Shown here: piece by piece, positions 38,342 through 49,699 of the stretch
Position numbering within the stretch: position 1 is the stretch's first letter
How the letters are laid out: every line of letters begins with the position of its first letter
NCBI RefSeq assembly: GCF_036023875.1
Contig: NZ_CP107931.1
Location: 3,162,001-3,226,000, forward strand
Length of the DNA: 64,000 nucleotides
Source: Mycobacterium sp. NBC_00419
Lineage (GTDB): Bacteria; Actinomycetota; Actinomycetes; Mycobacteriales; Mycobacteriaceae
Reading direction: 5' to 3'
Notes under the pieces: generated by a model
What the model was told of the DNA's origin: nothing
The model's input: only the letters and a program-made list of their open reading frames with translations
Databases searched by the model: none
Made by a program: the position numbers and the translations under genes

Positions 38342-39418
38342 TTACAGGCCGACGCGGTCGGCAAGCAGCGCCCGATGGTGGGTGCTGTTGCCGAAAAGCG
38401 CTGCGGTGGTCTTGGCTCGGCGGAAGTACAGGTGCAGATCGTGCTCCCAGGTGAAGGCGATGCCCCCGTGTACCTGGATCGCCGAGCCCGCGCACAGGGT
38501 GAAGGTGTCGGCGGCCTGGGCCTTCACCAGCGGAGCGCTGACCGCCAACTCGTCGGGGTCCTCCGCGCTCATGGCCGCGTACATCACCGCGACGCGAGTC
38601 GCGTCGATCTCGATCATCATCTCCGCACACATGTGCTTGACCGCCTGGAACGTGCCGATCGGGCGGTCGAATTGCATTCTGCTGCAGGCGTAGTCGACGG
38701 ACAGTGCCAGGCACGCCTCGGCGCCGCCGAGCATTTCGGCGGCCAGCAGCACCCGTGCGGTGTCCACCACCCGATCGATCTCGGACGGCGGCGCCGCCTC
38801 GAGCGGTTCGGCCTCGGCCCCTCGCAGCGTCAGGCGCGCGGCCGGGCGGGTGATGTCGAAGGAGCGTAGCGATGCGACCGTGGCGCCGGGACTGTCGGCG
38901 CGCACGGCATACAGTCCGACCTCACCGTCGGCGCACGCCGGTACGACGAACAGGTCCGCCACGTGACCGTGCAGGATCGGACCGCACACGCCATCGAGTG
39001 TGGTGCCGCCGGCCGTGCGGGTGGCTGTCACGGGTGCGGTGGCCGTCGCAGCGAACGCGGCGACCTGGTCTCCGCACGCCAGGCCCGGAAGCAGCCGGGC
39101 GCGCTGCTCCTCGTCGCCCATCCGCAGAATGGCGTGGACCGCGAAGAGATGGGTGGCCAGCGGCACCGGGGTCAGCGCCCGGCCCAACTCCTCCATGACG
39201 ATCGCCGCCTCGGAAAGGGAGGCGCCCACTCCGCCGTACTGGACGGGCACGTGCAGTCCGGGTAACTCCAGCTCCCGGCACAGCCGCTGCCAGAGCCGTT
39301 CGTCATGACCGGCGTCGGTGGCCACTTCGCGTACCCGTGACAGAGGCGCGGCGTCCTGCAGGAAGCCGCGTACCGAACTACGGAAGTCCTCTTGCTCTGT
39401 GCTGTAACGGAAATCCAT
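38342..39418 (-). CDS. fadE18: Acyl-CoA dehydrogenase, non-catalytic-type partner subunit (FadE18-like)
   Basis: This 358-residue acyl-CoA dehydrogenase-family protein starts at ATG 39418, one base after the stop of the other FadE gene. It has FAD-domain segments (GGVGASLSEAAIVMEELGRALTPVP; QVHGGIAFTWEHDLHLYFRRAK) but lacks the YEG/YAGSSQIQRN C-terminal region seen in its partner. This is the pattern of mycobacterial heterotetrameric (alpha2beta2) ACADs, in which two adjacent FadE genes build one enzyme. Position next to echA13 matches Rv1933c. The acyl substrate is unknown. Confidence 0.85.
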   Translation of the reverse strand: MDFRYSTEQEDFRSSVRGFLQDAAPLSRVREVATDAGHDERLWQRLCRELELPGLHVPVQYGGVGASLSEAAIVMEELGRALTPVPLATHLFAVHAILRMGDEEQRARLLPGLACGDQVAAFAATATAPVTATRTAGGTTLDGVCGPILHGHVADLFVVPACADGEVGLYAVRADSPGATVASLRSFDITRPAARLTLRGAEAEPLEAAPPSEIDRVVDTARVLLAAEMLGGAEACLALSVDYACSRMQFDRPIGTFQAVKHMCAEMMIEIDATRVAVMYAAMSAEDPDELAVSAPLVKAQAADTFTLCAGSAIQVHGGIAFTWEHDLHLYFRRAKTTAALFGNSTHHRALLADRVGL

Positions 39419-39419
39419 G

Positions 39420-40664
39420 TCAGCGGGGCTCTTTCGGTAGTCCCAGGAGCTTCTCGCCGATGACGTTGCGCTGAATCTGCGAGCTGCCGGCGTAGATCGT
39501 CGCCGCCCGTGCGTAGAGCAGCTCGTCGAGCCAGCACGATGACGAGTTGGGAGTCCCGGGGGCGGCAATGATCAGGGCCTCGCCGTTGCCCGACCCCTCG
39601 GGGCACAGCGCGTCGAGACCGAGGATCTCGACGGCGAGGTCGGTGCAGCGCCGGAAGTACTCGCTCCAGATCACTTTGTTGACCGCGGCCTCGGCGCCGG
39701 GCCGCTGCCCGTTCAGTAGCGCGGTCAACCCACGGTAGCCCTGATAGCGCAGGATCTGCACTCGCGAATAGCACCAGGCCAGTTCGTCGCGGACGTGGGG
39801 ATCGTCGTGCACACCGCGGTCTCGGGCGAGCTGCCGAAGCCGGTCGAGGTCGCGGCCGAACTCGATTGCCGCCGTGGTGATCTGGGATCCCCGCTCGAAG
39901 CCGAGCACCGTCATCGCGGTTGCCCAGCCGCCGCCGACACCGCCGAGGACATCGGCGGCCGCGGCCCTGGCGTCGGTGAAGAACACTTCCGAGAACGAGG
40001 CGTGCCCGGCGGCGTTGACGATGGGCCGTACGACGACACCGGGCTGGTCGATCGGCACCAGCAGCATGGACAGACCCTTGTGCTTGGGTGCGGCGGCGTC
40101 GGTGCGCGCCAGCACGAAGATCCAGTTGGCCGTCGGGCCTGCGGAGGTCCAGATCTTCTGCCCGTTGAGCACCCAGTGTTGTTCCCCCGTCGCTTCGCTC
40201 GCCCCATCCCTGCCGTCGAGTACCGCTCGGGTCCGCACCGCCGCCAGATCCGATCCCGCGTCCGGCTCGGAGAAGCCCTGGCACCAGCGGTCTTCGCCGG
40301 TCAGGATGCGGGGCAGGAAGCGTGCCTTCTGGTCCTCGGTGCCCAGCGCGATCAGGGTGTTGCCCAGCAGGTCGATGCCGATCGAGTCGTTCTCTTCGCG
40401 TTCCGGCGCGCCGGCCCTGGCGAACTCCTCGGCCAGAACCACCTGTTCGATCACGGACAGCCCGCCGCCGCCGTATCGGGTGGGCCAGGACACGGCGACC
40501 AGGCCGCGGTCGGCGAGCAACTTGCGCCACCAGTGCCGCACTTGTGCGCGTTCGTCGGGCGCCAGCGCACCCGGTCCTTGCCATCCGGCGGGCAGGTGCT
40601 CGCCGAGGAATGCTCGGATCTGGTCGCGGAACGCGTGCGCTTCGATGGGGTAGTCGATGTCCAC
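39420..40664 (-). CDS. fadE17: Acyl-CoA dehydrogenase (FadE17-like)
   Basis: This 414-residue acyl-CoA dehydrogenase has the FAD and substrate motifs WCQGFSEPDAGSDLAAVRTRA and WVLNGQKIWTSAG, a conserved Arg-rich DxxxR region, and a C-terminal IYAGSSQIQRNVIGEKLLGLP typical of the family. It starts at ATG 40664, 14 nt after the echA13 stop. With the following fadE18-like gene it probably forms an alpha2beta2 dehydrogenase. Gene order echA13-fadE17-fadE18 matches Rv1935c-Rv1933c, part of the Mce3R regulon in M. tuberculosis. Confidence 0.88.
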   Translation of the reverse strand: MDIDYPIEAHAFRDQIRAFLGEHLPAGWQGPGALAPDERAQVRHWWRKLLADRGLVAVSWPTRYGGGGLSVIEQVVLAEEFARAGAPEREENDSIGIDLLGNTLIALGTEDQKARFLPRILTGEDRWCQGFSEPDAGSDLAAVRTRAVLDGRDGASEATGEQHWVLNGQKIWTSAGPTANWIFVLARTDAAAPKHKGLSMLLVPIDQPGVVVRPIVNAAGHASFSEVFFTDARAAAADVLGGVGGGWATAMTVLGFERGSQITTAAIEFGRDLDRLRQLARDRGVHDDPHVRDELAWCYSRVQILRYQGYRGLTALLNGQRPGAEAAVNKVIWSEYFRRCTDLAVEILGLDALCPEGSGNGEALIIAAPGTPNSSSCWLDELLYARAATIYAGSSQIQRNVIGEKLLGLPKEPR

Positions 40665-48489: not shown

Positions 48490-48496
48490 CGCCGGT

Positions 48497-49699
48497 TCAG
48501 CCCGTCGGGGCCAGGCTGGTCAGAATCGCCATCGCGATCGCGGTCATCTCCTCGGCGACGTCGCTGCGCCGGGTCAGATGCCACGTGCGCGAGGCGTCTT
48601 CGATGAAGCTGACTGCAGCCGCCACCAGCAGCCGCGCCTGGGCGGCGGTGGTCTGTGGAACCTGTGTGCGGATCACGTCGATCCACACACCGTCCCGGTC
48701 GGCCTGGTTCTTCACCACCGTCTCGCGTACCTCCTCGGAGGCCGACGACAGCTCGGTGATCGTCACCGACACCAGGTCGGGGTCGTCGAGGCTGATCCGT
48801 ACCCGGCCGGCGACCAGTCGTTGGAGTCGTTGGGAGGCAATGTCATTGGCGCGCAGCGCACGAACAGACTCCAGCGTCGACCACTCGTCGAGGCGACGTA
48901 CCAGCGCATCCAGGATGGCCTGCTTGGAGGAGAACGAACGGTACAGGCCCGGACCGGCGATGCCGACGAGCTTGCCGATCTCGGCCGTGCTCACCGCGGG
49001 ATAGCCGCGGGCCCGAAACAGCCGCGCACCGGCGGCCAGCAGGGTCTCGTAGCGGGAGAACAACGCCGCCGCCCGGTCCGGTGCCGCATCGATCGGTGCC
49101 AGTGTGCCGACGGCCGGTGTGCATGCGGCCGCCAGGCAGGCGCGGTACAGAAGCTCCTTGAGCTCGCCCGCGGGCAGGGTGAGGTTATGGCGCCCGAGAC
49201 TGGTCAGGGTGCTCGACACCGCCCAGGCGCGCAATTCGGTGTGCGCGGGGCTCAGCCCGGGCATCTCCAGGCGCACGCCGGCCTGCATACCGGCCACGAT
49301 CGCGTTGATCCGTGACCGGACCTCGCGGCGGTCGTCGTCGGTGAGATAGCGGGCCTCGCGCTGCCACAGCACGGTCAGGGCGCGGGTCTCGACGGCCGCG
49401 GAGATCAGGTCGGGCAACTCGGCCCGCAGCGGCCGGGCGTCCGCCTCCGGTGCGCGGCCACCGGGATTGCGGACGCTTTGATACTCGTCCTGTGCGTTGA
49501 GGATCACCGCGGTCAGCAGCGCCTGCTTATTGTCGTAGTGGCGGTACAACGCGCGCGCGGTCACACCGGCCGCCTCGGCGATCTCCTCGAGTCTGACCGA
49601 GTGGAAGCCGCGGTCGATGAACAGCCGCGCCGCCTGTTCGAGGATCTGCTGTTTGCGGTCCTTGGGTCGGCGCCGCACGGCGGGGACGGTCGTCTGCAT
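48497..49699 (-). CDS. mce3R: Tandem-TetR repressor (Mce3R-like)
   Basis: This 400-residue regulator contains two TetR units in one chain. The first HTH (about residues 30-60) reads VRLEEIAEAAGVTARALYRHYDNKQALL and the second (about 232-262) VSTAEIGKLVGIAGPGLYRSFSSKQAIL, each followed by a helical ligand domain. Two non-identical recognition helices in one chain are the hallmark of Mce3R, which in M. tuberculosis represses the mce3 operon, Rv1933c-Rv1935c and Rv1936-Rv1941. Here the gene is physically attached to the last two of these target sets, a strong contextual match. No mce genes are in the window. The ATG 49699 start follows a basic N-terminal arm. Confidence 0.87.
   Translation of the reverse strand: MQTTVPAVRRRPKDRKQQILEQAARLFIDRGFHSVRLEEIAEAAGVTARALYRHYDNKQALLTAVILNAQDEYQSVRNPGGRAPEADARPLRAELPDLISAAVETRALTVLWQREARYLTDDDRREVRSRINAIVAGMQAGVRLEMPGLSPAHTELRAWAVSSTLTSLGRHNLTLPAGELKELLYRACLAAACTPAVGTLAPIDAAPDRAAALFSRYETLLAAGARLFRARGYPAVSTAEIGKLVGIAGPGLYRSFSSKQAILDALVRRLDEWSTLESVRALRANDIASQRLQRLVAGRVRISLDDPDLVSVTITELSSASEEVRETVVKNQADRDGVWIDVIRTQVPQTTAAQARLLVAAAVSFIEDASRTWHLTRRSDVAEEMTAIAMAILTSLAPTG

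What the first reader, a model, noticed from the sequence alone, without database searches (positions are those of the whole stretch)
38342..49699. mel2/Mce3R island assembled in one block with its own repressor
In M. tuberculosis the Mce3R gene lies with mce3, away from Rv1933c-Rv1941. Here the tandem-TetR regulator directly abuts both target operons and no mce genes are present. This may be the ancestral regulon and suggests that Mce3R primarily governs this oxidation pathway: LLM oxygenase, ferredoxin-linked oxygenase, epoxide hydrolase, SDR, beta-oxidation and double FadD. The substrate is unknown.
Basis: partly seen in the sequence, partly recalled or inferred. Interest (0 to 1): 0.7.

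Follow-up and report, generated by a model that had tools for sequence, protein, structure and literature searches.

The report
Mce3R–mel2 lipid oxidation island
A mycobacterial gene island for oxidising a lipid-like compound sits next to its own repressor, and the two were found only together in the related genomes sampled, whereas the mce3 transporter genes that the repressor is named after are optional.

Summary
Observation confirmed. The window holds echA13-fadE17-fadE18-fadD::fadD divergent from melF-G-H-J-K, with a full-length Mce3R (PDB 9b7y, 565 bits) convergent 7 bp past melK and no mce gene at the locus. The linkage is the rule: in 396 sampled genomes of the genus, Mce3R and MelG occur in the same 69, and in all 65 with both on one contig they lie convergent within 9.5 kb. 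A two-site operator (opposed asymmetric sites, 62-64 bp apart) lies between echA13 and melF in all 52 loci readable there. Its core occurs in 68 of the 69 Mce3R genomes and in none of the other 327. In the window's genome the only close site-1 matches are the echA13/melF and mce3R/luxR promoters; no pair lies at the eight mce operons. So Mce3R is in effect mel2's repressor. The "ancestral" idea is half right: linkage looks ancestral, but the mce-less form is one nested clade, better read as a detachment (2 versus 4 changes). Published statements confining Mce3R to pathogens and mel2 to M. marinum/M. tuberculosis do not hold.

The parts
35172..38318 (-). fused FadD-FadD (two complete acyl-CoA synthetase modules, 1048 aa), last gene of the echA13-fadE17-fadE18 operon
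   Evidence: Two AMP-binding and two AMP-binding_C stretches in one stop-free ORF; 40 of the 120 listed homologues (2136 found) are full-length fusions of 1043-1056 aa at 71-93% identity (P0241-P0280)
38342..39418 (-). FadE18-like acyl-CoA dehydrogenase
   Evidence: Acyl-CoA_dh_1/_N; ATG at 39418
39420..40664 (-). FadE17-like acyl-CoA dehydrogenase
   Evidence: Acyl-CoA_dh_N/M/1
40679..41575 (-). EchA13-like enoyl-CoA hydratase
   Evidence: ECH_1; NF006140 413 bits, cut-off 280
41643..41660 (-). Mce3R operator site 1 (CGTACTGGCTATGGACAT)
   Evidence: 32.2 bits with a matrix trained on 51 other loci, window left out
41719..41739 (+). Mce3R operator site 2 (AAGTATCTTGCTAGTACTGTG)
   Evidence: 44.0 bits, the maximum; 62 bp from site 1 in opposed orientation; its 17-base core (at most 1 mismatch) found in 68 of 396 genomes, all Mce3R-bearing
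41793..42902 (+). MelF, luciferase-like monooxygenase
   Evidence: Bac_luciferase
42935..45472 (+). MelG, 2Fe-2S/flavin reductase fused to an FAD monooxygenase-like half
   Evidence: Fer2, FAD_binding_6, NAD_binding_1, weak DAO below its cut-off; the 120 listed homologues are 76-96% identical over 95-100%
45486..46535 (+). MelH/EphB epoxide hydrolase
   Evidence: PDB 2e3j/2zjf EphB, 708 bits, residues 2-349
46585..47682 (+). MelJ/RibA1-like DHBP synthase with a shortened GTP cyclohydrolase II part
   Evidence: DHBP_synthase; GTP_cyclohydro2 positions 3-93 of 165
47716..48489 (+). MelK, short-chain dehydrogenase
   Evidence: adh_short_C2
48497..49699 (-). Mce3R, tandem TetR repressor
   Evidence: PDB 9b7y Mce3R 565 bits, residues 4-397; 18 of 20 residues named in the DNA-contact analysis of PMC11667970 invariant in 69 of 69 sequences
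49766..49786 (-). weak site-2-like element of the mce3R/luxR operator pair
   Evidence: Opposed to the next site at spacing 63; weak on its own (-5.7 bits; pair 13.9, against -3.0, -12.9 and -13.4 for the best pairs of three shuffled windows)
49846..49863 (+). Mce3R site 1 of the mce3R/luxR promoter (CATACTGACTATAGACAT)
   Evidence: 19.6 bits; the only other match with at most 1 mismatch in the whole genome; the TAGACATA block is aligned in all 19 mce-less loci
49893..50843 (+). GAF-LuxR regulator divergent from mce3R, where other loci have the mce operon
   Evidence: GerE 71 bits, GAF_2 below its cut-off; homologue next to mce3R in 19 of 69 loci, all mce-less

Best explanation
The island is a single, Mce3R-repressed catabolic module. 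One repressor controls the divergent echA13/melF promoter region, and so both operons together. Mce3R binds two copies of one asymmetric element, in opposed orientation and 62-64 bp (about six helical turns) apart, and a weaker pair in its own promoter, which here also faces a GAF-LuxR regulator. A lipid-like inducer (sterol- or fatty acid-derived, perhaps a CoA thioester) would release it. The enzymes would activate the compound to a CoA ester (FadD-FadD), desaturate and hydrate it (FadE17/FadE18, EchA13), oxygenate it (MelF, MelG), open an epoxide (MelH) and oxidise the alcohol (MelK), with MelJ topping up flavin precursors. In the window's clade the mce transporter operon is away from the locus and without a recognisable Mce3R operator. 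Shown: genes, orthology, co-occurrence, operator sequences, no operator pair at the eight mce operons. Inferred: repression, looping, inducer class, substrate, reaction order.
For: Mce3R orthology over full length; one clade apart from six other tandem TetRs; 18 of 20 named DNA-contact residues invariant in 69 of 69. Mce3R and MelG in the same 69 of 396 genomes; 65 of 65 same-contig pairs convergent within 9.5 kb. Operator pair at spacing 62-64 in 52 of 52 readable echA13-melF regions although these vary from 230 to 351 bp. Site-2 core in 68 of 69 Mce3R genomes and 0 of 327 others. Own genome: two site-1 matches with at most 1 mismatch, both in the island; at up to 3 mismatches 31 against 37 for the reversed control. 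No pair at the eight mce operons. Spacing is compatible with the two 25-bp sites 53 bp apart measured for Mce3R upstream of yrbE3A (PMC11667970, passages). That Mce3R controls mel2 genes in M. tuberculosis is stated in PMC11036813 (passages).
Against: No binding or expression data for this species. The mce3R/luxR pair is weak in its site 2 (-5.7 bits), so control of luxR is the least sure part; two of 19 mce-less loci (G284, G098) gave no positive pair there and G268 only one with spacing 65 and a very poor site 2. Some mce-linked loci (G160, G185, G218) also have only weak pairs near mce3R (2.9-13.9). The 69 genomes are related and not 69 independent cases (at least 10 changes of presence on a 70-row rpoB tree). 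Pathway order and substrate rest on family names.
Confidence: 0.82

Rival explanations
1. The mce-less block is the ancestral regulon and mce was recruited later, perhaps more than once.
For: Two different mce lineages sit beside mce3R (38 linked rows of one, 7 of the other), which suits repeated recruitment; copies of the second kind also exist unlinked in G160 and G039, which have a linked operon as well; the Mce3R tree has an open base and cannot place the root.
Against: On rpoB the mce-less/LuxR form is one nested clade and mce-linked forms lie on both sides of the deepest split; unlinked root 4 changes, linked root 2 (57 of the 69 island genomes; G037 and G203 counted as linked, G006 as unlinked). 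Six of six mce-less relatives sought (of 18) keep a close mce operon elsewhere.
Confidence: 0.25
2. Mce3R in this clade still controls the detached mce operon in trans through a changed operator.
For: An operon of the same mce clade persists at 4.46 Mb (L186); its YrbE protein is 89-92% identical to those of six mce-less relatives.
Against: No operator pair at any of the eight operons of the window's genome (best score -2.6) nor at the six operons of relatives (best -11.7); HTH contact residues unchanged, so a new specificity is unlikely.
Confidence: 0.08
3. The genes travel together only as a mobile or passively inherited block; the regulator has no special tie to mel2.
For: Patchy distribution in the genus (69 of 396) with at least 10 presence changes.
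Against: Operator conserved at the target promoter while the surrounding spacer varies, and its core absent from all 327 sampled genomes without Mce3R.
Confidence: 0.05

Closest known systems
M. tuberculosis Mce3R regulon (Rv1963c; mce3 Rv1964-1971; Rv1933c-1935c and Rv1936-1941)
   Same: Orthologous repressor (PDB 9b7y), same two target operons, two-site asymmetric operator of compatible spacing
   Different: Here repressor and operons form one block, mce is absent, a GAF-LuxR gene stands in its place, MelI is missing; a fused FadD-FadD ends the fadE operon (not part of the M. tuberculosis operon as recalled)
mel2 locus of M. marinum / M. tuberculosis (melF-melK)
   Same: melF, melG, melH, melJ, melK in the same order; MelH matches the solved EphB
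   Different: melI absent; found here and in environmental species, against the published view that it is specific to those two (PMC5584760, abstract start seen in the listing)
Mce3R-linked mce operons of other mycobacteria
   Same: 46 of 69 loci have an mce operon on the 5' side of mce3R, transcribed away from it, its first yrbE match 0.3-6.2 kb off, with mel2 on the other side where both are on one contig
   Different: The window's clade (19 of 69) has no mce there; the window's nearest relative of these operons is 1.25 Mb away without an operator pair

Membership tests
Mce3R | two TetR units in one chain aligning over the full length to M. tuberculosis Mce3R | tested here: met
   PDB 9b7y, residues 4-397, 565 bits; next PDB match 62 bits
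Mce3R | belongs to the Mce3R clade, apart from other tandem TetRs | tested here: met
   69 rows split from 6 outgroup tandem TetRs at 100/99; the 9b7y sequence itself was not a row
Mce3R | residues named in the DNA-contact analysis of PMC11667970 | tested here: met
   all 20 positions identical in the window; 18 invariant in 69 of 69, V46 68 of 69, R9 39 of 69; M2 positions shifted by 3 after the alignment
Mce3R | operator of two asymmetric sites about 53 bp apart | tested here: met
   41643-41660 and 41719-41739: 62 bp between equivalent bases, 58 bp between the 18- and 21-bp matrices; about 53 bp if each is widened evenly to 25 bp
Mce3R | divergent mce3 operon under its control | tested here: not met
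   no mce/yrbE hit within 9.7 kb 5' of mce3R nor anywhere in the window; so it is a Mce3R ortholog without mce3, not an mce3 repressor
Mce3R | represses its targets | not testable with these tools
   needs binding and expression experiments
mel2 locus | melF-G-H-(I)-J-K order | tested here: met
   all but melI, in order; melI is often missing by gap size, so it was not taken as defining
mel2 locus | confers resistance to reactive oxygen/nitrogen species | not tested
   published for M. marinum and M. tuberculosis (PMC1793995 and PMC11036813, passages)

The most novel reading that the evidence does not exclude
Mce3R is misnamed: it is the dedicated repressor of the mel2/fadE17-18 oxidation module, an environmental lipid-catabolic island, and mce3 is a facultative passenger. 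In the window's clade the mce operon has been exchanged for a GAF-LuxR regulator under the same operator. The C2-symmetric Mce3R dimer would bridge the two opposed sites, about six helical turns apart, by a DNA loop.
Probability: 0.55. Interest if true: 0.6.

Novelty: new variant of a known kind. Interest (0 to 1): 0.5.

Why it matters
It turns a regulator studied as a virulence-operon repressor into the repressor of an oxidation pathway that environmental mycobacteria carry too, so the inducer can be looked for in harmless species. It gives an operator definition sharp enough to predict targets (core in 68 of 69 Mce3R genomes, 0 of 327 others). It also contradicts two published statements: that mce3R orthologs are exclusive to a subset of pathogenic mycobacteria (PMC11667970, passage) and that mel2 is specific to M. 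marinum and M. tuberculosis (PMC5584760, abstract start in the listing); that species such as M. sphagni are environmental is recalled.

Tried and rejected
Rejected: that the tandem TetR is only Mce3R-like; that mce is absent from the genome; that the detached mce operon keeps a Mce3R operator; that the fused FadD-FadD is special to the mce-less clade (full-length fusions are also listed for M. stellerae, M. moriokaense, M. hippocampi and M. montefiorense).

Led nowhere or went wrong: the first rpoB tree took the longest frame, which was antisense in several rows, and was discarded; one search replaces it (quick method, SH-aLRT support only). The Mce3R tree could not be rooted because the outgroup branches are very long. 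The null set for operator pairs was cut from loci of which L196, L198 and L207 hold the echA13-melF region, so I take its two scores above zero to be real sites. Protein comparison of MelH and MelG was uninformative. Rows dropped before counts: G125's second, split Mce3R (one search used the first place); 17 of 69 loci whose echA13-melF spacer was not readable; 12 of 69 island genomes without an rpoB row; G076 in the yrbE tree. Literature searches for earlier reports. Santangelo 2009, the regulon paper, was seen only as a citation.
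Full report
WHAT IS THERE. The window lies at 3,162,001-3,226,000 of a 5.6 Mb single-contig genome of the genus Mycobacterium in the wide sense (names of its nearest protein relatives). Two operons diverge from 41.58-41.79 kb. Leftwards: echA13-like, fadE17-like, fadE18-like and a fused fadD-fadD (35172-38318), with gaps of 1-23 bp. Rightwards: melF, melG, melH, melJ and melK. Mce3R (48497-49699) runs towards melK, 7 bp from its stop. Domains are; MelH matches the solved EphB at 708 bits; the tandem TetR matches the solved Mce3R (9b7y) over residues 4-397 at 565 bits, while the next PDB entry scores 62 bits. 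MelI, a flavin reductase in relatives, is absent. Divergent from mce3R lies a GAF-LuxR regulator. Both FadD halves keep an AMP-binding and a C-terminal domain.

IS IT MORE THAN CHANCE. In 396 whole genomes drawn from the genus, Mce3R was found at 67-100% identity in 69 (the next tandem TetRs are at 41% or less). MelG was found in 69 at E <= 1e-100 (weaker MelG matches were not asked for). They are the same 69 genomes. In 65 both are on one contig, always convergent, 3.0-9.5 kb apart; in the other four they are on different contigs. In a family-wide sample of 401 genomes MelG was found in 9, all of the window's own genus (1 of 31 genera). A search of about 5.8 billion proteins listed 120 of 324 hits, one of them named as a Pseudonocardia MAG, at 77%. 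The scan (capped at 80 loci) gave 32 named loci of the Mce3R clade (L031-L062), among them M. rhodesiae, M. sphagni, M. hippocampi and M. pinniadriaticum, all with mel genes beside it; that these are environmental species is recalled.

THREE ARRANGEMENTS. Of 69 loci, 46 have an mce operon on the 5' side of mce3R, transcribed away from it, with the first yrbE match 0.3-6.2 kb off; 19 (window included) have the LuxR gene and no mce; 4 have neither within 9.7 kb (the 5' side of G268 was readable for only 6.0 kb). Of the last four, G037 and G203 do have an mce operon 10-15 kb away, G006 had no YrbE hit above 65% identity to L186, and G120 was not followed. In a tree of YrbE pairs the linked operons fall into two lineages (38 and 7 linked rows). 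These, the window's operon near 4.46 Mb (L186) with those of six mce-less relatives, and two unlinked copies in G160 and G039 together form one clade, but its base is unresolved; by identity the L186 YrbE is nearer the smaller linked lineage (83-86%) than the larger (about 70-75%).

WHICH IS ANCESTRAL. The Mce3R tree puts the LuxR-type on one side of a branch (69/93) but cannot be rooted. A corrected rpoB tree of 70 genomes (57 of the 69 island genomes, 11 chosen without the island, 2 outgroups; quick method) places the LuxR-type as one nested clade of 14 rows plus one island-less genome; mce-linked forms lie on both sides of the deepest split among island bearers. Parsimony on this tree needs 2 changes from a linked ancestor and 4 from an unlinked one (G037 and G203 counted as linked, G006 as unlinked). 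The difference is modest, one gene was used, and the two mce lineages beside mce3R leave room for recruitment.

THE OPERATOR. Aligning the echA13-melF spacers of the mce-less loci showed conserved blocks. In the 52 of 69 loci where the whole spacer could be read, the best matches to the two blocks (17-19 of 19 and 13-17 of 17 bases) stand in opposed orientation, 62 (31 loci), 63 (18) or 64 bp (3) apart, although the spacer varies from 230 to 351 bp. Both blocks begin GTAT and go on to GCTA in most copies, so they look like two copies of one asymmetric element. A matrix trained without the window scores its pair at 76.2; the best pairs in three shuffled windows score -3.0, -12.9 and -13.4. The window's second pair, in the mce3R/luxR promoter, scores 13.9 at spacing 63. 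Such a pair is scored positive in 17 of 19 mce-less loci, 16 at spacing 63 and G268 at 65; not in G284 or G098. Most mce-linked loci carry a stronger pair nearer yrbE (up to 72) and often a weaker one nearer mce3R; G160, G185 and G218 have only weak ones. The distance is compatible with the two 25-bp sites 53 bp apart measured for Mce3R (PMC11667970, passages); that paper suggests looping, and opposed sites would suit its C2-symmetric dimer (inference).

SPECIFICITY. The 17-base core of site 2, with up to 1 mismatch, occurs in 68 of 396 genomes: 68 of the 69 with Mce3R and none of the 327 without. The missing one, G160, has a more diverged copy. Of 89 places, 67 lie before melF-melG, 19 lie 5' of mce3R, two are in G125 islands whose MelG match is partial, and one (G301, another contig) is unexplained. 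In the window's genome site 1 has two matches with at most 1 mismatch, both in the island; at up to 3 mismatches there are 31 against 37 for the reversed control, so the rest are at chance level. Site 2 has one exact match and one with 3 mismatches. None of the eight mce operons carries a pair (best -2.6); the two single Mce hits outside them were not scanned with the matrices.

HOW IT MOST LIKELY WORKS. See Best explanation. Published support comes from M. tuberculosis: Mce3R represses mce3 and itself (PMC2277422, abstract) and controls mel2 genes (PMC11036813, passages); [quoted passage not shown] Substrate, order and inducer are inference.

KNOWN OR NEW. The parts are known; the general tie of Mce3R to mel2, the genus-wide operator and the mce-less clade were not found in the searches made, whose library lacks most subscription papers. 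The 2009 regulon paper was seen only as a citation; it had predicted motifs in both the mce3R-yrbE3A and Rv1935c-Rv1936 regions (as told in PMC11667970).

Noticed in passing
window 35172-38318: A fusion of two complete acyl-CoA synthetases in one chain; 40 of the 120 listed homologues have this form. In 4 of 5 mce-linked far-side loci the best match covers only the C-terminal half beside fadE18, and G105 gave none; all 15 mce-less far-side loci match over nearly the whole length.
   Followed up: partly
window 31998-35178: A cytochrome P450 and a POT-family transporter follow the fadD fusion, the latter overlapping its stop convergently. Of 15 mce-less far-side loci, 11 match the transporter and 12 the P450; G284 and G098 match neither, and G018 and G301 end at a contig end.
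   Followed up: partly
G125 contig 1, near 5.7-14.7 kb and 5.93 Mb: Two copies of the island in one genome; in one the mce3R match is split into two pieces.
   Followed up: no
G000 contig 1, 1.13 and 5.58 Mb (L180, L187): Two very similar yrbE pairs in different mce operons of the window's genome.
   Followed up: no
window 50850-54815: DeoR regulator, PTS EIIABC sugar transporter and zinc alcohol dehydrogenase: what looks like a separate sugar-uptake block next to the LuxR gene.
   Followed up: no
P0224: A protein named as from a Pseudonocardia MAG, 77% identical to MelG, the only one of the 120 listed hits named outside the genus; transfer or contamination.
   Followed up: no
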